From contig JAGPDF010000048.1 in the NCBI GenBank assembly GCA_018057705.1, positions 1 through 35,372 on the forward strand: a DNA stretch of 35,372 bases, in the 5' to 3' direction. Origin of the DNA: Thermoanaerobaculia bacterium. GTDB taxonomy: Bacteria; Acidobacteriota; Thermoanaerobaculia; Multivoradales; JAGPDF01. This document shows, piece by piece, positions 3,373 to 30,871 of the stretch. The notes beneath the pieces are model-generated. The model had not been told where the DNA came from. It searched no databases and was given only the letters and a program-made list of their open reading frames with translations. Positions within the stretch are counted from its first letter, which is position 1, and each line of letters begins with the position of its first letter. The position numbers and the translations under genes were made by a program.

Positions 3373-5607
3373 ATGTCCCCGCTGCCGATTCGCGCCCTGC
3401 ACCTCGCCCTCGTCGCCTCGATGCTCCCGGGGCTCTCCTGCACGGGCGAATCGTCCGCCCCGGGAGTCACCGGGGGCGAGCCGACGGCGGCACCCGTGGC
3501 TGGCGCGGTCTCCGCGACGCCCGCCTCCCCTTCGAGCCCGGCAGCCCCGGCGACTCCGGCAAGCACCGTGAGTCCCGCGCTGTCGGGGACCGACGCCGAC
3601 AAGATCCTCGTCGTCTGGGAGTCGAATCGCTCAGGGGAGTTCCGCATCTGGCGCCAGGACATTCCCGGCGGCGAGCCGCGACAGATCTCCCCCGAGGAGC
3701 CCGGGCGCGACCACTGCTGCGCGAAGCTCTCGCCGGACGGCAGCCGCCTGGTCTACTTGAGCCTCCCGGGTGGAGCCCGCAAGTACGCCCAGGACGCCGG
3801 CCCGCTCCATCTGGTCGACGCCGACGGCGGACGGGACCGGATTCTCGTGCCCGCGGCCCGCCACTACGGCGAGCATCGTGCCGCGGTCTGGTGGGGCGAG
3901 GACGAGCTGGTCTACATCGATGGCAGAAGCGCGACGCAGTTGCTCCGCCTATCGGCCGGGTCGACCACCGAGCTCATCGGGGCGCGCGCCGCGAGCGCGA
4001 CCGCCCATCCCGGCGAAGGTTGGCTCGTGGCTCCCGGCGGGCAGGTCGTCTCCGGAAATACGCCCACCTTCTCCGACCACACCGAAGGCGAGGGGGTTCG
4101 AATCCGGCCGTCGCTCGGCGGCTGCCAGCCTGCGTTCTCGCTGGACGGCCGCTTCGCGGTCTGGTCGGCGGGTGCCGGCGGCCCGATCGACGCCCTAGAT
4201 CTCGCCACGCGGCGCAGTTGGACCGTGCTCGAGAAGGGCGATCCGCACCTCCCCGCGGGCCGCGGCTACAGCTACTTCCCGGCGCTCTCGAACGACGCCT
4301 CGCTGCTCGCCGTGGGGGCCTCCGCCGGGGAGCACGACCACTTCCGCGCCGACTACGACATCTACGTCCTCGAGCTCGATCCGTCGACGCTCCTGCCCGC
4401 CCCCTCCGGCGCGAACAGCGCGCGCGTGGTGGCGCCCCATCCGGGGGTCGATCGCTTCCCCGATCTCTATCGGCCGGCCCGTCCGGTGGATCGCGCCGGC
4501 GCGAGGGGCGTCCAGGCTTCGGGCACTTCGGCCACCGCGGTCCCTGCGGCCGCCGAGCCGCACGCCGGCGACGGACTCACCCGGCGCGGCCTGGTCTTTC
4601 TCTGGCAGCGCGCCGACGCCGAGAATCGCGTCGCCGCCGACAGCTCGAGCGAGACCCTGCAGCCGCAGGGTCTCGCCTGGGTCGACCGCCACCGGGCGCT
4701 CGCCCTCGGCGGCGGCTCGTTCTCGGCCGCCGAGGAGACCGCTCGCCGGCTCGCCGAGACGCTCGTCGCGAAGCACCAGATGACGCTCTCGCTCCTCGTC
4801 ACGCCCGCCTCGCTCCGCGAGCGCGGCGCGATCGTCGCCTTCTCGGACGGTCCGCGGGCGCGCAACTTCGTTCTCCGCCAGGAAGGCGACCAGGTCGTCT
4901 TCGCCCTGCGCACGTCGGACAGCGCAAAAGAGGGGCTCGCAGTCCCGGTCGCAAGGCTCGCGTCGACCGCATCGACCGCCCCGACGCACCTGCTGCTCAC
5001 CTTCTCGCCCGGGCGCCTGGCCGTCTTCGTCGATGGCAAGAGCCCGGGCGCCGCCGCGGAGCCGATCGCCCTGCCCGGGGACTTCTTTCACTGGCGGCCC
5101 CGCGCCCTCCAGTTCGGCGCCGAAGCGAAGTCCGAGGAGCGCTGGCACGGCACGGTCGCCGAGATCGCCATCTGGAATCGCCCACTTCAGGCGACCGAGA
5201 TCGCCGCCGAGGCGGCGCGCGTCCGGGCGCTCGTCGACGCGCGCCCGGCTGCTCCGCGGGCCGAGCTCGAGTTGCGCCTCCTCGCCTCCTCGCCGGCGCC
5301 GGGGCTCGAGGAGATCTCGCCCTACCGCGAGGCCCTCGTGGTCGACGAGCTCGAGGTCGTCCGGCAAATCTCGGGGCCGCCGGTCGCCGCACCCCGGATC
5401 CGCGTCGCCCGCTGGGCCATCCTCGACGGTCAGATGCTCGCGCCGCCGCGCGTCGGCGAAGTCCGCCGTCTGGTGGTCGAGCCGTTCGCGGCGCAGCCAC
5501 AGCTCGAGCCGTTCTATCTCGCCGACCGCCTGCCGGCGGCCTCCGGACATCCCCTCTATTTCGATCTCGGGGCGACTTCGGCGGCCGAAGCCAGCGCCAC
5601 GCCCTGA
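3373..5607 (+). CDS. Probable lipoprotein with PD40/TolB-like propeller and C-terminal LamG (concanavalin-like) domain
   Basis: The product is 744 aa from the ATG at 3373. I chose this start because it gives a signal peptide with a hydrophobic stretch ending GLSC (an imperfect lipobox) and follows the TATACT box; the open frame continues upstream, but only inside pilB. A low-complexity Ala/Pro/Ser/Thr linker (about residues 25-75) follows. Then come WD40/PD40-like strands (IWRQDIPGGEPRQIS, LSPDGSRLVYLS) to about residue 380. A LamG-like jelly roll at about 430-620 contains HLLLTFSPGRLAVFVDGK and the typical closing strand GTVAEIAIWNRPL. A C-terminal region of about 120 residues is unassigned. 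The stop is 3 nt before the MBOAT gene, so the two are surely cotranscribed. It may bind the glycan that the two downstream enzymes modify; that is inference. Confidence 0.8.
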   Translation: MSPLPIRALHLALVASMLPGLSCTGESSAPGVTGGEPTAAPVAGAVSATPASPSSPAAPATPASTVSPALSGTDADKILVVWESNRSGEFRIWRQDIPGGEPRQISPEEPGRDHCCAKLSPDGSRLVYLSLPGGARKYAQDAGPLHLVDADGGRDRILVPAARHYGEHRAAVWWGEDELVYIDGRSATQLLRLSAGSTTELIGARAASATAHPGEGWLVAPGGQVVSGNTPTFSDHTEGEGVRIRPSLGGCQPAFSLDGRFAVWSAGAGGPIDALDLATRRSWTVLEKGDPHLPAGRGYSYFPALSNDASLLAVGASAGEHDHFRADYDIYVLELDPSTLLPAPSGANSARVVAPHPGVDRFPDLYRPARPVDRAGARGVQASGTSATAVPAAAEPHAGDGLTRRGLVFLWQRADAENRVAADSSSETLQPQGLAWVDRHRALALGGGSFSAAEETARRLAETLVAKHQMTLSLLVTPASLRERGAIVAFSDGPRARNFVLRQEGDQVVFALRTSDSAKEGLAVPVARLASTASTAPTHLLLTFSPGRLAVFVDGKSPGAAAEPIALPGDFFHWRPRALQFGAEAKSEERWHGTVAEIAIWNRPLQATEIAAEAARVRALVDARPAAPRAELELRLLASSPAPGLEEISPYREALVVDELEVVRQISGPPVAAPRIRVARWAILDGQMLAPPRVGEVRRLVVEPFAAQPQLEPFYLADRLPAASGHPLYFDLGATSAAEASATP

Positions 5608-8929: not shown

Positions 8930-9012
8930 CGCCTGCGCCGCTGGTCCGCCTCCAATCGGCGGCGGAACCGGCGCCTCCGTCACCGAACTGAGGGAAGCTC
9001 GACCCTTCCTGA

Positions 9013-9052
9013 CCGCTGTATGACGCCCGTCATGCAGCGGTTTTTGCTTTTC
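9013..9052 (+). terminator. Strong rho-independent terminator (12-bp stem, T-run)
   Basis: CCGCTGTATGAC (9013-9024), loop GCCC, then GTCATGCAGCGG (9029-9040) pair over 12 positions with a single wobble, followed by TTTTTGCTTTT. It lies 83 nt after the thiol-transferase gene and ends transcription before the heme-copper operon. The inner part is also an inverted repeat, ATGAC-N4-GTCAT, with the spacing of FNR/DNR-type sites. Confidence 0.85.
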
Positions 9053-9104: not shown

Positions 9105-9266
9105 ATGAACGAACCGGGCAACACCACCGAGGCGATTCCGCTCGGACAGCGTCTGTTCGATCGGCCGTTTCTGCTGCTCGCCGCCGGACTGATCGTGATG
9201 TTCCTCTTCTATACCGGATGGGGGCTCTGGGAGATTCTCAGCCTGCCCGCCGGAAAGCTACCGTAA
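9105..9266 (+). CDS. 53-aa single-helix membrane peptide, likely small subunit of the heme-copper complex
   Basis: This short gene has an excellent ribosome site (AAGGAGG, 5 nt before the ATG). It encodes a polar N-terminus, one transmembrane helix (about residues 21-43, PFLLLAAGLIVMFLFYTGW) and a short tail ending GKLP. Its stop overlaps the AAGGAGG of the CuA subunit gene 11 nt downstream, so the two are translated in series. Position and form match subunit IIa of Thermus ba3 oxidase, a one-helix peptide that supplies the helix missing from a short subunit II. Here subunit II has its own N-terminal helix, so the equivalence is inference. It is easy to miss in automatic annotation. Confidence 0.75.
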   Translation: MNEPGNTTEAIPLGQRLFDRPFLLLAAGLIVMFLFYTGWGLWEILSLPAGKLP

Positions 9267-9277
9267 GGAGGCCTGCC

Positions 9278-9901
9278 ATGGAATTCCATTCCGGCGTCGT
9301 CCCGCCGCAGGGCGTCTGGTGGCGCCCCGCAGGCAAGCAGGAAAAGCTCTGGGTCGCGATCGCTTTCGCCTGGTGCATGGTGCTCTTCGCCATGATGCCC
9401 TTCTGGCACATCAAGGGCGGTCAGAACCCCTCCGGCATTCGCAGCCGCGTGACGCCCGAAGACTTTCTGGCGCGCGTCTTCACCTTCGTCGAGGACTACA
9501 AAGTCAGCGAAGAGAATGGCATCCCGCTGGTCGCCCCGCCGCCGGGTAGCGACGTCTACCTGCTCGGCCAGATGTGGCGCTGGTATCCGGCGCTCGAGCT
9601 CGAGGAGGGCGTGAGCTACACCCTCCACCTCTCCTCGATCGACATCAACCACGGATTCAGCCTCTACCCGGCCAACATCAATTTCCAGGTCATGCCGGGC
9701 TACGACTACGGCCTGGTCATCAAACCCAACAAGCCCGGCGAGTACCGCATCGTCTGCAACGAGTTCTGCGGCGTCAACCATCACAACATGCTCGGCCGCA
9801 TCGTGGTCCGGCCGGCGAAACAGGTGGCGCAGGCAACCTCGCAGGGGACCCCGCAGACCCTGCAGATGACCCCGATACCGGCCCAGGAGACGACGCGATG
9901 A
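9278..9901 (+). CDS. Heme-copper reductase subunit II with complete CuA site
   Basis: The product is 207 aa; the ATG at 9278 sits behind the AAGGAGG overlapping the previous stop. One N-terminal transmembrane helix (about residues 24-42) is followed by a periplasmic cupredoxin domain. The binuclear CuA ligands are intact: H125 (DINHGF), then CNEFCGVNHHNM giving C160, E162 (backbone), C164, H168 and M171. It therefore accepts electrons from a periplasmic donor such as cytochrome c or a cupredoxin and passes them to the heme of subunit I. No cytochrome c domain is fused and no CXXCH is present. The last about 25 residues are a Gln/Thr/Pro-rich tail. Its stop overlaps the subunit I start (ATGA). 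Confidence 0.92.
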   Translation: MEFHSGVVPPQGVWWRPAGKQEKLWVAIAFAWCMVLFAMMPFWHIKGGQNPSGIRSRVTPEDFLARVFTFVEDYKVSEENGIPLVAPPPGSDVYLLGQMWRWYPALELEEGVSYTLHLSSIDINHGFSLYPANINFQVMPGYDYGLVIKPNKPGEYRIVCNEFCGVNHHNMLGRIVVRPAKQVAQATSQGTPQTLQMTPIPAQETTR

Positions 9902-11667
9902 GCACCATGGCCACCACTCCCGCCGCTGCCGGTTCCTCGAATCCCGACTCGGCGCTCTGGCGCCTTGCATCGCGTCTGTGCCCGGTGACCGGCCTCCGGG
10001 TCAACCGCGACTCGGAGCTCCTGGTGCGCTGGAACGCGGTCGTCGGGATCGTCTTCCTGCTGGTCGGCGTGGTCGCGGCGCTGCTCCTGGCGCTCACCCG
10101 CTGGCAAGCGGTGCAGCTCCTGGCGCCGACCTGGTTCTACCGCATCCTCACCCTGCACGGCCTCAACATGCTGATCTTCTTCATCATCTTCTTCGAGATG
10201 GCGATCCTCTACTTCGCCGGACCGATCGTCCTCGGATGCCGGCAACCGGCGCCCAAGCTCGCCTGGGCCGGGTTCAGTCTCATGCTCATCGGCGCTCTGC
10301 TGGTCGACGTCGTCGTGCTCATGGGCCGGGCGGACGTACTCTTCACCTCCTACGTGCCGCTCAAGGCGCATCCGCTCTACTACCTGGGCATCATCCTCTT
10401 CGCGGTCGGAGCGCTCATCGCCACCCTCCTCTTCTTCGCCGCGCTGGTCGTGGCGAAACGCGAGAAGAGCTACACCGGATCGATGCCGCTGGTCTCCTTC
10501 GGCGCGCTCACCGCGGCGATCATCGCGGTGATCACGCTGCTCCACGGCGCGGCGATCTACATCCCGACCTTCCTCTGGTCGATGGGGTACATGAACGTCG
10601 ACCCGGAGGTCTACCGCCTGATGTTCTGGGCCCTGGGACACGCCTCGCAGCAGATCAACGTCGCCGCGATGGTCTCGGTCTGGTACCTCATGGGCGGCCT
10701 GACGATCGGCGCCGTGGTGCTCAACGAGAAGGTGAGCCGCTGGGCGTTCGTCCTCTACGTGCTCTTCATCTCGATGGCCTCCGCCCACCACCTGCTGGTC
10801 GATCCCGGCTTCGGACCGGCGTGGAAGGTCTGGAACACCAGCTACGCCATGTACCTCGCGGTGCTTGCCTCGATGATCCACGGCTTCACGGTGCCGGCCG
10901 GCATGGAGACCGGCATGCGCTTGCGCGGCTTCGTCAAGGGCCGCTTCGAATGGCTGAAGAAGGCCCCCTGGTCGGACCCGGGATTCTCCGGGACCTTCCT
11001 CTCGCTGGTGATCTTCGGCTTCATGGGCGGCATCACTGGCGTCACCCAGGGGACCGAGCAGATCAACATCCTCGCGCACAACACGCTGCGTATCCCCGGC
11101 CACTTCCATGTCACCGTGGTCGGCGGCACGGCGCTCTCGTTCATGGCGCTCACCTACTACGTCATTCCCCTGATCTTCCGCCGCAAGGTGGCGTTCTGGG
11201 GCGCCGCCAAGTGGCAGCCGTACCTGTTCGCGATCGGCATCGTGATCCTCTCGATGTCGATGACCTTCGCCGGCAGCTTCGGCGTACCGCGCAGGAGCGC
11301 CGACATCTCGTTCGCCAAGGCGCCGTTCACGCTCGAGTTCCCGCCGATCGTCGACCTGCTGCTCGCCGGAATCGGCATCGGCGGCACGATCACCTCGATC
11401 GCTGTGCTGCTGTTCATCGCGATCGCCGTGAAATCGGTCTTCTTCGGCGAGAAGCTCGACTTCGCGGCGATGCAGCCGGGGATGCCGGGCGTGCCGCAGG
11501 GCGTGGTGAAGCTGCCTGCCCAGACCCATTCCGGCGAGAACGCCGAAGCGGTCCACAAGAGCGGCGCTCCGGGCACGATCGTTCTGGTTTTCGTCTTCCT
11601 GGCGGTCTTCATCCTCTACTACTTCGCCAACTGGAAGGTCCTGTCGATGATCTGGAAGATCGGCTGA
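9898..11667 (+). CDS. Heme-copper superfamily subunit I, B-family-like, lacking the active-site Tyr (candidate NO reductase)
   Basis: The product is 589 aa with 12 or more hydrophobic helices; it starts at the ATGA overlap. All six metal-binding His are present: H87 (LTLHGLN, low-spin heme), H248 (LGHASQQ, CuB or FeB), H297/H298 (AHHLLVDPG) and H402/H404 (PGHFHV). The AHHLLVDPGFGPAWK and HNTLRIPGHFH segments resemble Thermus ba3 (B family). The hallmark Tyr four residues after the CuB His (GHPxVY) is Gln252 in GHASQQIN. The cbb3-type alternative (six residues before the HH pair) is Ile291. Oxygen reductases need that cross-linked Tyr; B-derived NO reductases with CuA partners lack it. I infer NO reduction or another non-oxygen activity. 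Automatic tools will probably call it cytochrome c oxidase subunit I. Confidence 0.9.
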   Translation: MSTMATTPAAAGSSNPDSALWRLASRLCPVTGLRVNRDSELLVRWNAVVGIVFLLVGVVAALLLALTRWQAVQLLAPTWFYRILTLHGLNMLIFFIIFFEMAILYFAGPIVLGCRQPAPKLAWAGFSLMLIGALLVDVVVLMGRADVLFTSYVPLKAHPLYYLGIILFAVGALIATLLFFAALVVAKREKSYTGSMPLVSFGALTAAIIAVITLLHGAAIYIPTFLWSMGYMNVDPEVYRLMFWALGHASQQINVAAMVSVWYLMGGLTIGAVVLNEKVSRWAFVLYVLFISMASAHHLLVDPGFGPAWKVWNTSYAMYLAVLASMIHGFTVPAGMETGMRLRGFVKGRFEWLKKAPWSDPGFSGTFLSLVIFGFMGGITGVTQGTEQINILAHNTLRIPGHFHVTVVGGTALSFMALTYYVIPLIFRRKVAFWGAAKWQPYLFAIGIVILSMSMTFAGSFGVPRRSADISFAKAPFTLEFPPIVDLLLAGIGIGGTITSIAVLLFIAIAVKSVFFGEKLDFAAMQPGMPGVPQGVVKLPAQTHSGENAEAVHKSGAPGTIVLVFVFLAVFILYYFANWKVLSMIWKIG

Positions 11668-11680
11668 CCGGATCGCCTCC

Positions 11681-12607
11681 ATGAGCACCCTGCCCGATCC
11701 AGCGCTTCCCCCGCATCGCTTCGCCGTCGGAGCCCTCTTCCTCTGGCTCGTGGTCACGGTCGGCTGGTGGGTCCTCGCGTTTGCGCCCCTGCCGGTACCG
11801 GCGGAGTGGCTGGATCAGGCAAGGGCGGTCTGTTTCGGCTCGTCGCCGTCCGGACTGCCGGACAATTACGGCTGGGTGCTCCTGGTTCTCGGACCGCTTT
11901 CGATGCTCGGTTTTCTGGTCGCCGTCTGGGGATCCGAGCTGCGCAGCGCTCTGCAGCGGGCGGCGCGCCGCTCGTGGGGCGTGGCGCTCATCGTCTGGAT
12001 CGCGGCCGGCCTCGTGGGCGGCAGCCTCTGGGTCGCCCGGCGCGTCGACGGCGCACGCCGCGCCGCCGCGGCCTATGCTCCCCTCGCCGAAGAAGAACGC
12101 CTCCCCGACGCCTATCCGCGGACCTTCGATCCCGCGCCGGCCCTGGGTCTCGTGGACCAGAACGGCGCGACTCTCGGGCTCCCCGAGCTCGCCGGCAAGA
12201 CCGTTCTCGTCTCTTTCGCTTTCGCGCACTGCGTCACGGTCTGCCCGGTGCTCATCGGTACTCTCCACGCTGCCATCGAGGGCCTGCCGCCGTCCGAGAC
12301 CGCGGTCGTCGTCATCACCCTCGACCCCTGGCGCGACACGCCCGCCAATCTTCCCGCTATCGCCAAGGCCTGGCGGCTCGAGCGCATCGCCGACGCCCGG
12401 GTGCTCTCCGGCGAGGTCGAGCAGGTGAACGCCGTGCTTGCGGAGTGGGGCGCGGGTGGCAATCGCGACGAAGCCACCGGGGAGATCAGCCACCCCGGGC
12501 TGATCTTCGTTGTCGACGCGCAGTCCCGCATCGCCTTCCGCTTCCTCAATCCACCGCGCGGCTGGCTGATCGATGCCGTCGCCCGCCTGCACCGCGAGGG
12601 CCGATGA
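11681..12607 (+). CDS. SCO1/SenC-type copper chaperone with a multi-helix membrane N-terminus
   Basis: The product is 308 aa. The C-terminal half is a thioredoxin-fold SCO domain with the copper ligands C184 and C188 (AHCVTVCP) and H271 (ISHPGLIF). SCO proteins deliver copper to, or reduce, the CuA cysteines of subunit II, which fits the upstream gene. The N-terminal about 130 residues are unusual for SCO: hydrophobic segments near residues 15-35, 65-85 and 100-120, with a loop CFGSSPSGLPDNYGW between the first two. Ordinary SCO proteins have one anchor helix. It starts 13 nt after subunit I and overlaps the next gene (ATGA), so it belongs to the operon. The catalytic domain is certain; the role of the extra membrane part is unknown. 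Confidence 0.88.
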   Translation: MSTLPDPALPPHRFAVGALFLWLVVTVGWWVLAFAPLPVPAEWLDQARAVCFGSSPSGLPDNYGWVLLVLGPLSMLGFLVAVWGSELRSALQRAARRSWGVALIVWIAAGLVGGSLWVARRVDGARRAAAAYAPLAEEERLPDAYPRTFDPAPALGLVDQNGATLGLPELAGKTVLVSFAFAHCVTVCPVLIGTLHAAIEGLPPSETAVVVITLDPWRDTPANLPAIAKAWRLERIADARVLSGEVEQVNAVLAEWGAGGNRDEATGEISHPGLIFVVDAQSRIAFRFLNPPRGWLIDAVARLHREGR

Positions 12608-14286
12608 GCTCGACTTCCCCTGTTTCCCGGCAGGACCCGCAGCTCGACGTCGGCTCGGCCGGTCCGCCGGCGGCGGTCCGCTTCCTGCGCTTCTGGACCG
12701 ATCCGGTCGAGCGCCTCCTCGACCGGATCTACGGTTCGAAGTGGAACCCGTTCTACCAGAGCGGCAACCTGGCCGTCCTCTTCTTCCTGGTCTCGCTCGC
12801 CTCCGGCCTGGTGCTCTTCCTCTGGTACCACATTGCCGATCCGTACGGCTCGGTGCGGGAGATTCACCAGGGCCTCCCGGGAGGGGCCTGGCTGCGCTCC
12901 CTCCACCGCTACAGCGCCGATCTCGCGGTGGTGGCGATCGTCGCGCACCTGGTACGCAAACTCCTCCAGGGGCACACCTGGGGACCACGGGCGCTCGCGT
13001 GGATCTCGGGCGTCGTCCTGCTTCTCGTCACCCTGTTCTGCGGCTGGACCGGCCTGGTCATGGTCTGGGACGTCCAGGGTCAGGGGATCGCCATCACCGG
13101 CGCCCGCCTGCTCGATCTCCTGCCGATCTTCTCGGAGCCGATCAGCCGCGCGTTCAGCGGCGACGTGCCGCCGGCCTCCTCGTTCTTCTTCATGACGCTC
13201 TTCCTGCACGTCGCCCTGCCGCTCGGGCTCGGCGCCCTGCTCTGGCTGCACGTCTCGCGGGTGTCGCGGCCGGCGCTCCTGCCGCCGCGCCCGATGATCC
13301 GCTTCCTGCTCGTCGTGATCGCCCTCGCGGCGCTCCTTGCGCCCCTGGAGCTCCCGCCGGCAGCCGACCTGCTGGCGCTGCCGGGGGTCGTTCCCACCGA
13401 TCTCCTCTACGCCTTCTGGCTGCCGCTCGCGCAGCGGCTCCCGGCCGGCGCCCAGGCGGCGCTCTGGGGCGGACTTCTTGTCCTGCTCTGCGCCGCACCC
13501 TGGTGGTGGCGGCCACGGCGCGCGATCTCGGTCTCGTCGGTCGACGAAAGCCACTGCACCGGCTGCACGCACTGCTACCAGGACTGCCCTTACGAGGCGA
13601 TCGCCATGGTGCCGCGGACGGTCCTCTCCCAGACCTCGCTGCTGGTCGCCCGGGTGGATCCCGACCGCTGCGTCGGGTGCGGGATCTGCGCCGCTTCCTG
13701 TCCGCCGATGGGTGTCGGACCCCAGAATCGCGACGGCCGCGACCAGCTCGCCGCCGCCCGTGCCTACCTCGACCTACGCCAACCGTACGGCCCGACCGGG
13801 CGCGAAGTGGTCCTCATCGCCTGCCGGAACGGCGCGGCCGCGCACCCGGAGACGCTGGCCCTTCCGGGCGTCGAGCTCTACCCGACCGGCTGCTCGGGCT
13901 CGGTCCACACGTCGGTCCTCGAACTGCTGATCCGCCGCGGCGTGGGAGGCGTTTTCATACTCTCCTGCCCGCCGCGCAACTGCTATTTCCGCGAGGGTCC
14001 GAAGTGGCTCGAAGCGCGCCTGGAGAACGGCCGCGACGCCGCCCTGCACCCCCGCGTCGACCGCCGGCGGGTGGCGTTCGCCAGCTTCTCGGCAACCGAG
14101 AGCGCCGCGATCTGCGCCGCGCTCGTCGCTTTTCAGGGCACGATCTCCGCGCTCGCGACGACCGCGGAAGCGGAGCCCGACCTCGAGGTCGTCTGCCTGC
14201 CACCTCTGGATCCGAACGCCCCCCCGACCCCGGCGCCCCCGGGCAACTCGAAGCGGTCAGCGCTGGTGGAGGTGACCGATGTCTGA
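12604..14286 (+). CDS. Cytochrome b - 2[4Fe-4S] ferredoxin - MvhD/FlpD-like domain fusion
   Basis: This 560-aa protein has three parts. Residues about 25-225 are a four-helix cytochrome b N-terminal domain with two His pairs spaced as in bc1/b6 proteins, H101-x13-H115 and H202-x13-H216, to bind two b hemes. Further helices lie at about 240-300. Residues about 310-370 form an 8Fe ferredoxin: C318, C321, C324, C328 and C356, C359, C362, C366. Residues about 400-500 resemble MvhD/FlpD, the [2Fe-2S] subunit linking hydrogenase or formate dehydrogenase to heterodisulfide reductase, with C407, C430 (PTGCSGSV), C455 and C460 (SCPPRNCYF). The tail is proline-rich. It starts at an ATGA overlap with the SCO gene. 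The Fe-S parts probably face the cytoplasm, so the protein could connect a soluble donor to membrane hemes or quinone; direction and partner are inferred. Confidence 0.88.
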   Translation: MSSTSPVSRQDPQLDVGSAGPPAAVRFLRFWTDPVERLLDRIYGSKWNPFYQSGNLAVLFFLVSLASGLVLFLWYHIADPYGSVREIHQGLPGGAWLRSLHRYSADLAVVAIVAHLVRKLLQGHTWGPRALAWISGVVLLLVTLFCGWTGLVMVWDVQGQGIAITGARLLDLLPIFSEPISRAFSGDVPPASSFFFMTLFLHVALPLGLGALLWLHVSRVSRPALLPPRPMIRFLLVVIALAALLAPLELPPAADLLALPGVVPTDLLYAFWLPLAQRLPAGAQAALWGGLLVLLCAAPWWWRPRRAISVSSVDESHCTGCTHCYQDCPYEAIAMVPRTVLSQTSLLVARVDPDRCVGCGICAASCPPMGVGPQNRDGRDQLAAARAYLDLRQPYGPTGREVVLIACRNGAAAHPETLALPGVELYPTGCSGSVHTSVLELLIRRGVGGVFILSCPPRNCYFREGPKWLEARLENGRDAALHPRVDRRRVAFASFSATESAAICAALVAFQGTISALATTAEAEPDLEVVCLPPLDPNAPPTPAPPGNSKRSALVEVTDV

Positions 14287-14815
14287 CCTGCGCGTCGCCA
14301 GCCTGCTGCGCCTCGGCCTGCAGGTCGCGGTGGCGCTCGGCCTGCTGCTCGGCGTGCAGGCACTGGCGCACCTGCCGCTCGGCGCGCCGCCCGAAGGGGC
14401 GGCCATCCGTCTCGCCGTTCGGACTTCGGCGGGCAAGCTCGAGATCTGTCGCGACGTCCCCGCCGAGGAGCTCGCGCAGTTGCCCATCCACATGCGCCAG
14501 TCGCGCATCTGCGAAGTGCAGCCGGTGGCGTATCGGCTCACGCTCAGCGTGGACGGCATGCCCTTGCGTGCCATCCATGCCGAACGCCGCGGCATGCGCA
14601 GTGACCGCGCCCTGGTCATCGACGATCTCGTGCCGGTCGCCGCCGGACGGCGGGCCCTGGTCGTCGCGCTCGAGCCGGAAGTGCCACCGGGCACGCCGGA
14701 GGCCGGCGCCGCGGTGCTGCCGCGCGGCGAGCTGCGGCAGACGATCGAGCTGCTGCCAGGGCGCATCGCTCTCGTGACCTGGGAGGCGAGCATAGGCCTC
14801 GCTGTCCGGCAGTAG
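14279..14815 (+). CDS. Unknown membrane-anchored protein at the end of the heme-copper operon
   Basis: This 178-aa protein overlaps the fusion gene by 8 nt, so it is translationally coupled to the operon. An N-terminal hydrophobic helix (about residues 10-32, LGLQVAVALGLLLGVQALA) anchors or exports it. The rest looks like a periplasmic beta-rich domain with two cysteines about 20 residues apart (KLEICRDVPAEEL and SRICEVQPVAYRL). I do not recognise the family. The position suggests an assembly factor or accessory subunit, and the two Cys could bind copper or form a disulfide. A function cannot be given. Confidence 0.8.
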   Translation: MSDLRVASLLRLGLQVAVALGLLLGVQALAHLPLGAPPEGAAIRLAVRTSAGKLEICRDVPAEELAQLPIHMRQSRICEVQPVAYRLTLSVDGMPLRAIHAERRGMRSDRALVIDDLVPVAAGRRALVVALEPEVPPGTPEAGAAVLPRGELRQTIELLPGRIALVTWEASIGLAVRQ

Positions 14816-24498: not shown

Positions 24499-27207
24499 TT
24501 ATCGCGACTCCGGGGGCGGCGACCAGTTCATGACCACCTCGATCCGCGCCCCGCCCCCTTCACCGACCAACTGATTGACCAGGAAGCGCTGCCCGTCGGG
24601 AGCGGGGCTGAAGTAGGTCCTGTTCGAGGTCACTTTCGGCTCGGGGGTGCGCAGCCGGAAGAGCGCGATCGGTGTAGCGAACGAGAACGGATCGGTGCTC
24701 GTGACCGGCACCGCCCTGAGAACGCGGTCGTGTCCGGCGAAGTAGAGCTCCTTGCCGTCGGCGCGCCAGTGCGGCCAGTCGCCGCCATCCCGCGAGACCT
24801 GCCAGTTGCCTCCCGCACTTGCGACAGCACGCACAAAGACCTGCCCGACACCGCCGTCGTCCGAGACGTAGGCGACCAGCTTCCCGTCCGGAGAGACGGC
24901 TGCATGCGCCTCGTTGGCGCGGCCTTCGAGGAACGGCACCGCCTTCTTCGACCCGTCGAGCGGCAGGATCCAGAGGTCGGCGCCGCGATCCGGGTCGTAG
25001 CGCTCGATCAGCAGACTCTTCCCGTCGGGAAACCAGGAGTCGACCCAGCAACCGACGCCCGATTCGAAGAGCAGCTCCTCGGCGCCGCTCCCGTCCGAGG
25101 ACTTGCGGAAGACCGCCCATCCGCTGGTGCGGGGCGACGTGTAGGCAATCGCTCGTCCATCGGGAGACCAGACAGGAGTCTCGCCACCGGCATCGAAGGT
25201 GAGCCGCCGGCCCTGGTCGAGACCGGCGGCGTCGAAGATCCAGAGCTGGCCCTTCTCTCCGGCCGTTACCGTCTGGACCGCGACCTGCCGGCCGTCCGGC
25301 GAGAGCGCGGGCTCCATCAATCTCGCCGCAGAGGTGACGGCGGCGAGCGGCGCTCCGCGGCGATCGAACCAGGCGAGCTCGGTGCTCTCCCGCGCGCCGT
25401 GGCGCAGGGCGATCGTTCCCGAGGCCGAGACGGAGTACCAGTCCTCGGCCGCCGCCTGCTCTTCGGCGCCGATCTGCGCGGCAAGCGGGCTGATCTCTCC
25501 CGAGAGCGTTCCGTTGGCCGGGTCGAAACGCTGCGCGACGAGCGATCCATCATGGACCCAGAGCAGGTAACCGCGCCGGTCGTAAGAGGCGCGCGAGACC
25601 TCCGGCAGGATGCGTCGTGCCGGCGTGCCCGCCGGGCCGCGCCAGTAGATTCCCGCAATCTCGTCGTTACCGAAGCAGGTGTAGATGAGCGCACCGCCAG
25701 GCAAGGCCAGGGGGAAGCGATGGCTTTGCTCGCCGCGACTCGAATCGAGTTCGGTCGCCCGATGGCTCGGTCCCGAAGAGGCCGAAACCTGCGAGAGCGC
25801 CGACGACGCGCCGGACGAGTAGTAGATCTCGCCGTCGTCGCTCCAGCTGCCGCCGCGCGGATCCGAAGCCGGGACCACGGTCTGGGAGAGACCGGTCGCG
25901 AGATCGAGGCGCTTCAACTGACCGCCGGCGAAAAAAGCGAGCTTCTTGCCGTCCGGAGACCAGAACGGCTGCTGGGCGCCTGTCGTCCCGGCGAGCGTCC
26001 GGCTCGCGCCGCTTTCGAAGGAGTGCGCCCAGAGTATGGCGGGCCCTTCGTCCGGCCGGAGCGAGAAAATCATCGTGCGGCCGTCGGGCGACAGCGCGGG
26101 AAAGCCCTGCAGGCTCCCCTTCTCCTCGGGGACGACGGCGAAGCGGGTCACCTGGGTCGCTGTGCCGGCGGCGCGGTCCGGGGCCTGCTGGCGCAGAACG
26201 AACGTGGCCACCGCCGCGCACCCGGCGAGGAGCGCGACGGACCAGGCCATCTGTTCGCGGCGCGACGCGCCGCGCGGCGGAACCTCGACCATCCGCGCCG
26301 GTTCGGTTGCTCCCTCGCCGCGCAGCTGCTCCTCGAGCACGATCCGCGCATCGGCGATGTCGTGCAGGCGGTTCTTCGGGTTGCGCTCGAGGCAGCGGCG
26401 CAGGAGCTGCCGGATCGCCGGCGGCGTCGACTCCGGCAGCTTCGAGAAATCGATCTCGGTCTTGAGCACGCCGGCGAGTGTGTCGGTCACGGTGTCGCCG
26501 GCGAAGAGCGAGCGGCCGACCAGCATCTCGTAGAGCACGACGCCGAAGGCCCAGATGTCCGCCCGCTTGTCGACCGTTACGCCACGCGCCTGCTCCGGCG
26601 CCATGTACGCCGCCGTGCCGAGGATCACCCCCAGCTGCGTCCCGTGCGCCGCCGTCAGGGTCGGCGACTGCATCAGCGTCGGCGAGCGCGCGAGATCCGC
26701 GGCCGACGCAGCCGACCCGGCCGAAGGATCCATGGCCTTGGCGAGCCCGAAGTCGAGGACTTTGACCTTTCCCTCTATGGAGGCCTTTATGTTCTGGGGC
26801 TTCAAGTCCCGGTGAACGATCCCCTTCTCGTGCGCCTCTTCGAGCGCCTGCGCAATCTGGAGCGCGACAGAAAGGCTCTCGGCAATGGCAAAGGCGCCGG
26901 ACTCGAGGCGCTCGGCGAGCGTCAGCCCGTCGACGAGTTCCATGACGAGCGCGCGTGTTCCGTCCGACTCTTCGAGGCCGAAGATCGAGGCGATGTTCGG
27001 ATGATGGAGCTGGGCGAGGAGCTTCGCTTCGCGCTCGAATCTCGCCAGGCGCTCCTTGTCCTCGGTGAATTCGGCAGGCAGGACCTTGATCGCGACCTGG
27101 CGATCGAGCCGGGTGTCGGTCGCCCGGTAGACCTCCCCCATACCGCCCTCGCCCAGCTTGGCGGTGATCTCGTACTGGCCGAGGCGGGTGCCCGAGGAGA
27201 GCGTCAT
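24499..27207 (-). CDS. Receptor-type Ser/Thr protein kinase with PD40 beta-propeller (kinase 1)
   Basis: The product is 902 aa. I chose the ATG at 27207 because [22 protein letters not shown] aligns with the two paralogues; the frame upstream lies inside vapC. The Hanks-type kinase domain (residues about 12-285) is intact: GEGGMG loop, K41 (VAIK), catalytic D134 (HRDLKPQN), D152 (DFG) and GTAAYMAPEQARG. The activation segment has several Ser/Thr (SPTLMQSPTLTAAHGT). One transmembrane helix (WSVALLAGCAAVATFVL, near 355) separates it from an outside TolB/PD40 propeller (FWSPDGKKLAFFAGG, WSPDGRAIAYTSPR). It starts only 16 nt after vapC without a clear ribosome site, so it is probably cotranscribed with vapBC. 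Ligand and targets are unknown. Confidence 0.93.
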   Translation of the reverse strand: MTLSSGTRLGQYEITAKLGEGGMGEVYRATDTRLDRQVAIKVLPAEFTEDKERLARFEREAKLLAQLHHPNIASIFGLEESDGTRALVMELVDGLTLAERLESGAFAIAESLSVALQIAQALEEAHEKGIVHRDLKPQNIKASIEGKVKVLDFGLAKAMDPSAGSAASAADLARSPTLMQSPTLTAAHGTQLGVILGTAAYMAPEQARGVTVDKRADIWAFGVVLYEMLVGRSLFAGDTVTDTLAGVLKTEIDFSKLPESTPPAIRQLLRRCLERNPKNRLHDIADARIVLEEQLRGEGATEPARMVEVPPRGASRREQMAWSVALLAGCAAVATFVLRQQAPDRAAGTATQVTRFAVVPEEKGSLQGFPALSPDGRTMIFSLRPDEGPAILWAHSFESGASRTLAGTTGAQQPFWSPDGKKLAFFAGGQLKRLDLATGLSQTVVPASDPRGGSWSDDGEIYYSSGASSALSQVSASSGPSHRATELDSSRGEQSHRFPLALPGGALIYTCFGNDEIAGIYWRGPAGTPARRILPEVSRASYDRRGYLLWVHDGSLVAQRFDPANGTLSGEISPLAAQIGAEEQAAAEDWYSVSASGTIALRHGARESTELAWFDRRGAPLAAVTSAARLMEPALSPDGRQVAVQTVTAGEKGQLWIFDAAGLDQGRRLTFDAGGETPVWSPDGRAIAYTSPRTSGWAVFRKSSDGSGAEELLFESGVGCWVDSWFPDGKSLLIERYDPDRGADLWILPLDGSKKAVPFLEGRANEAHAAVSPDGKLVAYVSDDGGVGQVFVRAVASAGGNWQVSRDGGDWPHWRADGKELYFAGHDRVLRAVPVTSTDPFSFATPIALFRLRTPEPKVTSNRTYFSPAPDGQRFLVNQLVGEGGGARIEVVMNWSPPPESR

Positions 27208-27223
27208 GCCGGCGCGATCCACA

Positions 27224-27637
27224 TCACGCGCCGCTCTCCAGCGGCAGGCGCTCGAGACCGGCGACGCGCTCGAAGCCGCGGTCGAACGAGGCGATGCGCG
27301 GGATGTCGTGGTTGAGCGCCACGCCGGCATGGACAGCGTCGCGCACCGAGAGGCCCTCGACCGTGCGCAGCAGCGCGCGTGCCCGATCCGTATCCGCCAG
27401 CGTCACCGGCAGGACGACCGGGCAGAGCTGCACGAAGAGCTCGTAGACCTCGTGCGCGAGGTCGGCGCGCCGGAGGCCGAAGTAGCGGTAGAGAATCTCC
27501 TGGAGCACCTCGGTCGACGTATACGCCTCGACCTCGCCGGTGCGCACCCGCGCGAGGAATCGCAGCGCCGGCTCGCGCAGCGGGTGATCCCTCCCTGCCA
27601 CGTACATCGGCACGTTCGAATCGACGAAGACCTTCAT
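27224..27637 (-). CDS. vapC: VapC-type PIN-domain toxin ribonuclease
   Basis: The product is 137 aa, normal for VapC. The four acidic residues that bind Mg2+ in PIN nucleases are present: D6 (VFVDSNVPMY), E43 (STEVLQEIL), D100 (SVRDAVHAG) and D119 (ASFDRGFERV). VapC toxins cut tRNA or rRNA when freed from their antitoxin. Its ATG overlaps the end of the vapB frame by 4 nt, the classic TA layout. It is followed after 16 nt by kinase 1, an unusual neighbour. Confidence 0.92.
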   Translation of the reverse strand: MKVFVDSNVPMYVAGRDHPLREPALRFLARVRTGEVEAYTSTEVLQEILYRYFGLRRADLAHEVYELFVQLCPVVLPVTLADTDRARALLRTVEGLSVRDAVHAGVALNHDIPRIASFDRGFERVAGLERLPLESGA

Positions 27638-27861
27638 CCGCGGCCCGTTTCGATCTCCGCCAGCATCTGATCGATGTCCGCAGTCGGACCACCGAGCGCG
27701 GCGAGGCGCTCCAGCGGATCGGGCTCGCGAGGCCCTTCGGTCAACGCCTGCTCAATGGCACGCCGGACCCATTCGCCCTTGGAGAGCCGCCTTCGCGCCG
27801 CCGCCTTGGCCAGCCGCGCTTCGAGACTCTCTGGAATGAGAACCTGCAATCGATGACTCAT
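27634..27861 (-). CDS. vapB: VapB-type ribbon-helix-helix antitoxin
   Basis: This 75-aa protein has an N-terminal ribbon-helix-helix: the strand RLQVLIPESLEARL, then the helix AAARRRLSKGEWVRRAIEQAL. The acidic C-terminal tail (about residues 45-75, PTADIDQMLAEIE) would wrap and inhibit VapC. RHH antitoxins bind their own promoter together with the toxin, and a repeat is present upstream. It lies immediately before and overlaps vapC by 4 nt. The start is the ATG at 27861; no strong ribosome site is seen. Confidence 0.88.
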   Translation of the reverse strand: MSHRLQVLIPESLEARLAKAAARRRLSKGEWVRRAIEQALTEGPREPDPLERLAALGGPTADIDQMLAEIETGRG

Positions 27862-27866
27862 AGGCG

Positions 27867-27880
27867 CATGCTAACATGCT
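27867..27880. promoter_or_regulatory. Candidate VapB operator, CATGCT direct repeat
   Basis: CATGCT-AA-CATGCT lies 5 nt upstream of the vapB ATG. Because CATG is itself palindromic, the block also reads as overlapping inverted repeats (GCATGC at 27866-27871). Its place and form suit ribbon-helix-helix autoregulation; this is inferred from position. Confidence 0.4.
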
Positions 27881-27965
27881 CACAGCAAGAGGTCGTCTCG
27901 CGCGAGCCCCAGAGGCAGGTCGTCCCGCTTCCGACCGACCAGCGAAAAGGGGTGGCGCCAAGGAC

Positions 27966-28136
<171 letters not shown>

Positions 28137-28161
28137 GGGGGACCGATCACCGCACCGTACT

Positions 28162-30861: not shown

Positions 30862-30871
30862 CGGGACCCGT

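What the first reader, a model, noticed from the sequence alone, without database searches (positions are those of the whole stretch)
12604..14286. Cytochrome b, 8Fe ferredoxin and MvhD-like domain fused in one protein inside a heme-copper operon
Seen: two H-x13-H heme pairs, two complete CxxCxxCxxxCP clusters and a C407/C430/C455/C460 pattern with the C-x4-C ending of MvhD. Known: MvhD carries electrons between hydrogenase or formate dehydrogenase and heterodisulfide reductase, and cytochrome b handles quinone. Inference: a one-protein electron conduit joins a cytoplasmic low-potential donor to the membrane. It might feed the terminal reductase via quinol or directly, or run the other way.
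Basis: partly seen in the sequence, partly recalled or inferred. Interest (0 to 1): 0.78.

Follow-up and report, generated by a model that had tools for sequence, protein, structure and literature searches.

The report
Iron-sulfur cytochrome b serving NO reductase
In an Acidobacteriota genome, a membrane protein joining cytochrome b, a ferredoxin and an MvhD-like domain sits in a conserved operon with an enzyme that looks like a nitric oxide reductase, and is probably that enzyme's own electron-supply unit.

Summary
In detail: window 12604-14286 (+) encodes one 560-aa protein with a bc1/b6-type cytochrome b (four haem histidines), two [4Fe-4S] motifs and an FlpD/MvhD domain. It is no artefact: homologues occur in Acidobacteriota, Bdellovibrionota, a Schekmanbacteria MAG and a Defluviimonas plasmid. 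The operon is small protein - CuA subunit II - haem-copper subunit I - SCO - fusion - new 178-aa subunit. Subunit I carries the Tyr-to-Gln change that marks the NO reductase eNOR, in 18 of 18 homologues. Fusion and subunit I co-occur: 8 and 7 of 297 Acidobacteriota (the extra one is a split variant) and the same 6 of 191 in a second phylum. The predicted cytochrome b keeps six helices and an invariant aspartate where bc1 has the PEWY glutamate of its quinol site. One relative lost only the Fe-S part, keeping cytochrome b plus the 178-aa domain in the operon. So the core is probably a quinol-to-NO-reductase module, with the cytoplasmic Fe-S arm as an extra low-potential port. HdrA, MvhD's usual partner, was not found in this genome.

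The parts
9011..9042 (+). Intrinsic-terminator-like hairpin (14 bp stem, T tail) that separates the operon from the DinB-like gene upstream
   Evidence: pattern; number found not above shuffles; folding -24.1 kcal/mol, z -6.6, 0 of 200 shuffles as stable
9105..9266 (+). 53-aa single-helix small protein (no family match)
   Evidence: found by tblastn upstream of COX2 in the homologous loci
9278..9901 (+). HCO subunit II with complete CuA ligand set (HG...CNEFCGxxHHxM)
   Evidence: NCBIfam CoxB 8.2e-11; His and C-x3-C-x3-H-x2-M conserved in all 16 aligned subunits II
9898..11667 (+). HCO subunit I, B-family-like, active-site Tyr replaced by Gln (Q252): eNOR-type NO reductase
   Evidence: COX1 2.2e-64; closest solved structures ba3 oxidase; Q252, H248, H297, H298, H87, H402, H404 invariant in 18 homologues; Gln as eNOR mark: PMC8756737 passages
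11681..12607 (+). SCO1/SenC copper chaperone with extra N-terminal hydrophobic stretches
   Evidence: SCO1-SenC 9.2e-20; conserved neighbour
12604..14286 (+). The finding: cytochrome b (helices A-F, residues about 50-301) + 2x[4Fe-4S] ferredoxin (about 311-370) + FlpD/MvhD domain (about 402-516)
14279..14815 (+). 178-aa subunit: one N-terminal membrane helix + predicted periplasmic beta domain with conserved C57, H71-M72-R73, C78; no known family; fused to the C-terminus of the cytochrome b protein in Bdellovibrionota and two Acidobacteriota

Best explanation
It is the dedicated electron-supply module of a CuA-containing, eNOR-type nitric oxide reductase. Cytochrome b (helices A-F, two b haems) binds quinol at a periplasm-side pocket that keeps an acidic residue (D266) in place of the PEWY glutamate, and passes electrons to the CuA of subunit II, with the 178-aa subunit as periplasmic docking piece and seventh helix. 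The 2[4Fe-4S]-FlpD arm is spliced into the cytoplasmic loop after helix F, next to the inner haem, and acts as a second, low-potential port that exchanges electrons with a cytoplasmic partner (ferredoxin or NAD(P)H-linked, not HdrA). SHOWN: sequence, motifs, operon, co-occurrence, fused variants, Fe-S-less variant. PREDICTED: fold and topology. INFERRED: quinol oxidation, delivery to CuA, NO as substrate, direction of flow in the Fe-S arm.
For: HCO subunit I has Gln at the cross-linked Tyr position and all CuB/haem His, 18 of 18; Gln is the published eNOR mark. Fusion and HCO co-occur: 8 and 7 genomes of 297 (HCO count unchanged at E<=1e-60) and the same 6 of 191. Cytochrome b and HCO distances correlate, r 0.88 over 19 loci, 0 of 2000 permutations as high. 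nirK lies within about 3 kb of the operon in 4 of 22 carrier genomes (with coordinates); nirK or nosZ over cut-off in 15 of 22 carriers against 3 of 20 others; this genome has nosZ. Four His, four Gly and D266 are 22 of 22, D266 aligning with the Asp of the SDWY motif of a cytochrome b encoded next to a Rieske protein. The model matches bc1 cytochrome b over about residues 42-308 (Z 18.7-23.6). G372 keeps cytochrome b + 178-aa domain without the Fe-S arm. In 16 of 22 carriers it is the only PF00033 protein found. No cytochrome c gene in the operon.
Against: No Rieske or c-type haem is encoded in the operon, so the step from quinol or haem bL to CuA has no visible carrier; the 178-aa domain shows no cofactor motif and its two Cys are missing in L035 and L036. 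PEWY itself is not kept (PTDLLY here), only the acid. eNOR-type HCOs on Thermus and Thermomicrobium plasmids have no such partner annotated within 8 kb, so it is not needed for the chemistry as such. This genome has no nirK over threshold. The Fe-S arm is conserved in most relatives, which a purely quinol-driven role does not explain.
Confidence: 0.5

Rival explanations
1. Direct wire: reduced ferredoxin or another cytoplasmic low-potential donor gives electrons to FlpD and the clusters, which run through haems bH and bL across the membrane to CuA, so NO is reduced with cytoplasmic reductant, bypassing quinol and cytochrome c.
For: Clusters and haems in one chain; C-terminus predicted cytoplasmic after six helices; a pyruvate:ferredoxin-oxidoreductase-like frame exists in this genome (named from sequence reading); no cytochrome c in the operon.
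Against: G372 lacks the arm yet keeps the rest of the unit; the 4th FlpD Cys is Ala in L028 and L051; the acid of the quinol site is invariant, 22 of 22, which a plain wire does not need; inside-to-outside electron flow costs membrane potential.
Confidence: 0.17
2. Quinol-based electron bifurcation: quinol is split at the Qo-like site, one electron falling to CuA and NO, the other pushed through bL and bH to the Fe-S arm to make low-potential reductant.
For: Invariant Qo-type acid plus an Fe-S exit beside the inner haem; the same idea is proposed, with supporting Rieske potentials, for anammox Rieske/cytochrome b complexes carrying NAD(P) oxidoreductases (PMC12954380, passages).
Against: No Rieske protein in the operon, hence no gated one-electron acceptor is known; no HdrA or other obvious acceptor enzyme; G372 without the arm.
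Confidence: 0.14
3. Assembly/maturation factor: like CcoG or NosR it brings electrons to the periplasm to reduce copper or thiols while CuA/CuB are loaded, with SCO next door.
For: SCO is the neighbouring gene; membrane core + cytoplasmic 2[4Fe-4S] + last helix + C-terminal periplasmic beta domain recalls the layout of CcoG (recalled, not tested).
Against: No FixG_C match for 8 of 8 homologues of the 178-aa subunit at E<=5 (HMMER filters apply); the Cys pair is not universal; a bc-type cytochrome b with a conserved quinol-site acid is unexpected for a cupric reductase; Thermus and Thermomicrobium HCOs lack it nearby.
Confidence: 0.12
4. Ferredoxin:quinone reductase: the arm reduces quinone at the inner (Qi-like) site and only indirectly feeds the NO reductase.
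For: Fe-S arm next to the inner haem in the predicted topology.
Against: Tight one-to-one association with one terminal reductase in two phyla is unexpected for a general quinone-pool enzyme; the Fe-S-less form persists in the operon.
Confidence: 0.07

Closest known systems
Cytochrome b of bc1/b6f complexes
   Same: Helices A-F, four haem His, four Gly with spacing 14/68/14, acidic residue in the ef loop
   Different: No Rieske or cytochrome c1/f in the operon; no b6-type Cys for haem cn (Gln52 here); helix H absent; Fe-S arm after helix F; helix G perhaps supplied by the 178-aa subunit (suggested by 14 of 50 alignments)
MvhD / FlpD (PF02662; PDB 5odc, 8rvu)
   Same: FlpD region with C430, C455, C460 aligned to MvhD-type chains
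   Different: Fused behind a membrane cytochrome b; HdrA not found in 21 of 22 carriers, this genome included
eNOR nitric oxide reductase (PMC8756737, PMC4653789, passages read)
   Same: Gln in place of Tyr, B-family relative, CuA subunit II next to subunit I, nirK nearby in some genomes
   Different: Only subunits I and II are described in what I read; here SCO, cytochrome b-Fd-FlpD and a 178-aa subunit are steady companions
Anammox Rieske/cytochrome b complexes with NAD(P) oxidoreductase (PMC12954380, passages read)
   Same: Cytochrome b with an Fe-S/redox extension on the cytoplasmic side, proposed low-potential exit
   Different: Those have Rieske, multihaem cytochromes c and a flavoprotein; here a Fd-FlpD arm and a CuA NO reductase
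RME88945.1, listed in Table A3 of PMC8756737
   Same: An ORF with a cytochrome b6-like, a ferredoxin-like (DMSOR_beta-like) and an FlpD domain already in a public table
   Different: Contains in addition a C1 cytochrome c homologue; the table gives no function; sequence not available to me
Split version in G153 (L033)
   Same: Cytochrome b-2[4Fe-4S] protein followed by a separate FlpD gene
   Different: In a cluster with cbb3-like subunits, cytochromes c, a Rieske protein and a full cytochrome b; no eNOR-type HCO in that genome at E<=1e-30

Membership tests
eNOR nitric oxide reductase (window subunit I) | Gln at the active-site Tyr position | tested here: met
   Q252 aligned to Y237 of ba3; 18 of 18 homologues; Haloarcula ba3-type control has Tyr; criterion from PMC8756737
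eNOR nitric oxide reductase (window subunit I) | Relative of B-family oxygen reductases with CuA subunit II adjacent | tested here: met
   ba3 4.2e-40 versus aa3-600 1.1e-07 in the PDB; CuA ligands in all 16 aligned subunits II
eNOR nitric oxide reductase (window subunit I) | Position inside the eNOR clade with biochemically shown members | not tested
   Reference set of Murali et al. 2024 not held; no tree made
eNOR nitric oxide reductase (window subunit I) | Reduces NO to N2O | not testable with these tools
   needs the expressed enzyme
Rieske/cytochrome b (bc1/b6f) complex | Cytochrome b fold with two bis-His haems | tested here: met
   (sequence and predicted fold; haems not shown)
Rieske/cytochrome b (bc1/b6f) complex | Acidic residue of PEWY in the ef loop | tested here: met
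   D266, 22 of 22; the rest of PEWY is not kept in the window
Rieske/cytochrome b (bc1/b6f) complex | Rieske protein and cytochrome c1/f partner in the operon | tested here: not met
   none among the six operon proteins; no genome-wide Rieske search was made
FlpD/MvhD | PF02662 above gathering score with Cys ligands | tested here: met
   42.7 bits against 22.3; C407/C430/C455/C460
FlpD/MvhD-Hdr system | HdrA partner in the genome | tested here: not met
   no NF040770 match at E<=1e-30 in G000 (25 of 49 first-look candidates were scored; assembly 96% complete)
CcoG/NosR-type copper-site maturation | FixG_C periplasmic domain | tested here: inconclusive
   no match in 8 of 8 at E<=5, but no fold comparison of the isolated domain

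The most novel reading that the evidence does not exclude
A Rieske-free, NO-driven quinol bifurcase: quinol is split on the outer face of a cytochrome b, one electron dropping directly to the CuA of an eNOR and the other pushed inward through both haems into a built-in ferredoxin-FlpD arm, so that NO respiration makes low-potential reductant for the cell.
Probability: 0.14. Interest if true: 0.88.

Novelty: new variant of a known kind. Interest (0 to 1): 0.62.

Why it matters
How CuA-type NO reductases of the eNOR kind are fed with electrons is not settled in what I could read. This unit gives a concrete, testable answer for one set of lineages: a cytochrome b partner of their own, in most carriers the only PF00033 protein found in the genome, with an Fe-S arm opening onto the cytoplasm. 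If the arm is active, NO reduction, the step that makes the greenhouse gas N2O, is wired to low-potential cytoplasmic metabolism in Acidobacteriota and Bdellovibrionota. It also supplies an evolutionary series (separate, fused, Fe-S-less, split) for the modular history of cytochrome b, and a marker set for finding these HCOs, which are annotated as cbb3 or ba3 oxidases in the records seen.

Tried and rejected
Assembly artefact: rejected; same domain order in independent assemblies and on a complete plasmid. O2 as the substrate: less likely than NO because Tyr is Gln in 18 of 18, but untested. Hdr circuit: no HdrA in G000. Haem cn as in b6: the Cys position is not Cys in any of the 16 aligned rows. 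The listed fold-search rows for both models were cytochrome b chains only, so FlpD, ferredoxin and beta domain are untested by fold. Distances between clusters and haems could not be measured (no coordinates given out). Literature: searches brought up no description of this fusion as an eNOR partner in the listings and passages I read; Murali et al. 2024 (PNAS) is not held, so I cannot say it is undescribed there. The nirK/nosZ enrichment is not corrected for phylogeny, and the 20 comparison genomes were handles picked by me. The distance correlation shows shared history, not physical contact. Rows dropped or partial: G005 (contig ends before subunit I), G007 (subunit I near a contig edge, no fusion found), G016 (subunit I and fusion in pieces), L025/G006 (frame lost in FlpD), L053/G376 (cut at contig end), L022 (left out of the 178-aa alignment because the stretch held a stop).
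Full report
CHECK OF THE OBSERVATION. The frame 12604-14286 (+) codes for 560 residues, starts within the end of the SCO gene and overlaps the next gene by 8 bases. H101/H115 and H202/H216 are the two H-x13-H pairs; C318-C328 and C356-C366 are the two complete 4Fe-4S motifs; C407, C430, C455 and C460 are the FlpD-type Cys. Pfam gives Cytochrome_B 3.6e-18, several Fer4 models down to 2.6e-10 and FlpD 6.7e-11, over their gathering scores. The FlpD part aligned by phmmer to solved MvhD-type chains (8rvv 2.6e-4, 8rvu 3e-4, 5odc 0.0079), with C430, C455 and C460 in register.

THE ORGANISM. The window lies in G000 (5.08 Mb, 177 contigs, 96% complete).

THE OPERON. A strong hairpin with a T tail (9011-9042) follows the DinB-like gene upstream; then come a 53-aa single-helix protein, subunit II with all CuA ligands, subunit I, SCO, the fusion, and a 178-aa protein with one helix and a beta-rich remainder. 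The same order is read on one strand in L023, L024, L025, L029, L030, L031, L035, L050, L051, L052, L053 and, with a haem o synthase gene added, on the Defluviimonas plasmid L068; in L024, L030 and L053 the contig ends before the 178-aa gene. In L026/L039, L032, L034, L037 and L038 the fusion and the 178-aa gene stand on the other strand, side by side with the small-II-I-SCO genes. In G340 and G248 the two halves are on different contigs.

WHAT THE REDUCTASE IS. Subunit I matches ba3 oxidase best among solved structures (4.2e-40). The residue aligned to the cross-linked Tyr237 is Gln252; Gln252, Gln251, the three CuB His (248, 297, 298) and the haem His (87, 402, 404) are invariant in 18 homologues. 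PMC8756737 (passages read) uses this Gln to recognise eNOR and tabulates Tyr for oxygen reductases, Glu for cNOR/qNOR, Asn for sNOR and CuANor, Asp for gNOR. PMC4653789 (passages) reports an eNOR in an operon with NirK. Here nirK lies close to the operon in G072, G224, G342 and G497, 4 of 22 carriers; in L032 and L034 it is a multicopper oxidase with a C-terminal cytochrome c. nirK over cut-off: 8 of 22 carriers against 1 of 20 others; nosZ: 10 of 22 against 2 of 20; either: 15 of 22 against 3 of 20, Fisher p 7e-4, not corrected for kinship. 'Carriers' means the 22 genomes with the fusion, the HCO or both. This genome has nosZ but no nirK at the threshold. A Rrf2-family regulator (the superfamily of NsrR and IscR) stands between the halves in L037. 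eNOR is therefore the likely, not proven, identity.

TIE BETWEEN FUSION AND REDUCTASE. Of 297 Acidobacteriota genomes 7 have this subunit I and 8 have the fusion: the same 7 plus G153. Loosening the subunit I threshold from 1e-120 to 1e-60 adds none. Of 191 genomes of the phylum of G343 (an Oligoflexia MAG) 6 have each, the same 6. The Schekmanbacteria genome G340 has subunit I on another contig. Distances in the cytochrome b part and in subunit I correlate (r 0.88, 19 loci, 0 of 2000 permutations). Against a strict need: eNOR-type HCOs with the same small-II-I core on Thermomicrobium roseum and Thermus thermophilus plasmids (46-48% identity, Gln kept) have no such protein annotated within 8 kb.

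ANATOMY. AlphaFold2 with 16 rows gave pLDDT 85, pTM 0.83. The membrane part superposes on cytochrome b of bc1 complexes over about residues 42-308 (Z 18.7-23.6, rmsd 2.6-4.6, about 250-260 residues), so helices A to F are there, not only the b6-like four. Gly54/68/136/150 have the spacing 14/68/14 known for cytochrome b (recalled) and are 22 of 22. The ef loop keeps an Asp (266) in 22 of 22; aligned with a Rieske-linked cytochrome b of L033 it falls on the Asp of SDWY, and Defluviimonas reads GLDWF. Ordinary cytochromes b of the order have PEWF. Helix F is followed by an Arg-rich stretch, and with six helices the C-terminal part should be cytoplasmic (inference). In the one-chain version of L031 (686 aa; pLDDT 82.9, pTM 0.80) the aligned range reaches the helix belonging to the 178-aa part (522-543) in 14 of 50 rows, with chain ends at 341-394, the neighbourhood of helix G in mitochondrial cytochrome b (recalled; one search gives first and last residues only). 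This suggests that the Fe-S arm is an insertion in the cytoplasmic F-G loop, that helix G comes with the 178-aa part, and that helix H is gone.

VARIANTS. (i) Fusion and 178-aa protein separate: most Acidobacteriota here, Schekmanbacteria, Defluviimonas. (ii) One chain: L028, L029, L031, L035, L036, L051, L052 (in L036 the last domain was recognised by eye, tblastn did not find it). (iii) L050/G372: cytochrome b joined directly to the 178-aa part, with no ferredoxin and no FlpD, one open frame of 460 codons in the intact operon. (iv) L033/G153: cytochrome b-ferredoxin followed by a separate FlpD gene, in a cluster with cbb3-like subunit I, FixO/cytochrome c, Rieske and full cytochrome b, without this HCO. 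In addition the fourth FlpD Cys is Ala in L028 and L051. PMC8756737 Table A3 lists RME88945.1 with cytochrome b6, a ferredoxin-like and FlpD domains beside a cytochrome c.

MECHANISM. Facts that any account must meet: constant pairing with a CuA NO reductase; no cytochrome c in the operon; invariant haem and quinol-site residues; Fe-S arm usual but dispensable in one lineage; HdrA not found in 21 of 22 carriers, this genome included; in 16 of 22 carriers no other PF00033 protein found. I take quinol oxidation by cytochrome b and delivery to CuA as the core (0.5), with the Fe-S arm as a second port. A transmembrane wire from ferredoxin (0.17), bifurcation (0.14), metal-centre maturation (0.12) and ferredoxin:quinone reduction (0.07) remain. 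The bifurcation reading has a precedent in the proposal for anammox Rieske/cytochrome b complexes (PMC12954380, passages read), but a Rieske protein is missing from this operon, so CuA itself would have to be the high-potential acceptor.

The sequence reading was accurate. The inference of a one-protein electron conduit is fair; the MvhD-Hdr link is not borne out, and the more informative points, the NO-reductase-type active site and the 178-aa partner, lay next door.

NOVELTY. Each module is known; a cytochrome b with an Fe-S-FlpD arm tied family-wide to an eNOR-type HCO did not turn up in the papers I could search, with the caveat that the main eNOR paper is not held.

Noticed in passing
L029:10052-11419 (+), L035:1966-3351 (+); also L028 about 3421-3621, L050 10261-11199 (-), L052 6467-7396 (-): A divergent HCO-subunit-I-like membrane protein (about 455 aa, motifs GxGHxxQFAN and P[GA]HYHA, no HH pair seen) stands near the operon in 5 loci; the L029 and L035 copies have no Pfam match at 0.01 and no NCBIfam match at 0.1.
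   Followed up: partly
L033:861-9102 (+), G153: Cluster joining cbb3-like subunit I, FixO/cytochrome c, a Rieske protein, a full cytochrome b with SDWY, a cytochrome b-ferredoxin protein and a separate FlpD: possibly a supercomplex operon of its own.
   Followed up: partly
L068:13514-13918 (+): Hemerythrin-family gene directly after the operon on the Defluviimonas plasmid, with a molybdopterin-enzyme region further on.
   Followed up: no
L070:3196-11062: Thermus thermophilus plasmid: eNOR-type HCO (Gln) beside a multicopper oxidase, a cytochrome c, an Rrf2 regulator and a DUF542 protein, annotated as cbb3 or ba3 oxidase in the listed records.
   Followed up: partly
L032:8892-10529 (-), L034:3155-4627 (+): NirK-like multicopper oxidase fused to a C-terminal cytochrome c near the operon.
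   Followed up: no
window 24499-33640 (-): Three large proteins in a row with nearly identical N-terminal protein-kinase-like stretches and different C-terminal parts (named from sequence reading, no family search).
   Followed up: no
window 11681-12607: The SCO protein carries extra hydrophobic stretches before its thioredoxin-like part; the N-terminal half aligns in relatives too.
   Followed up: no
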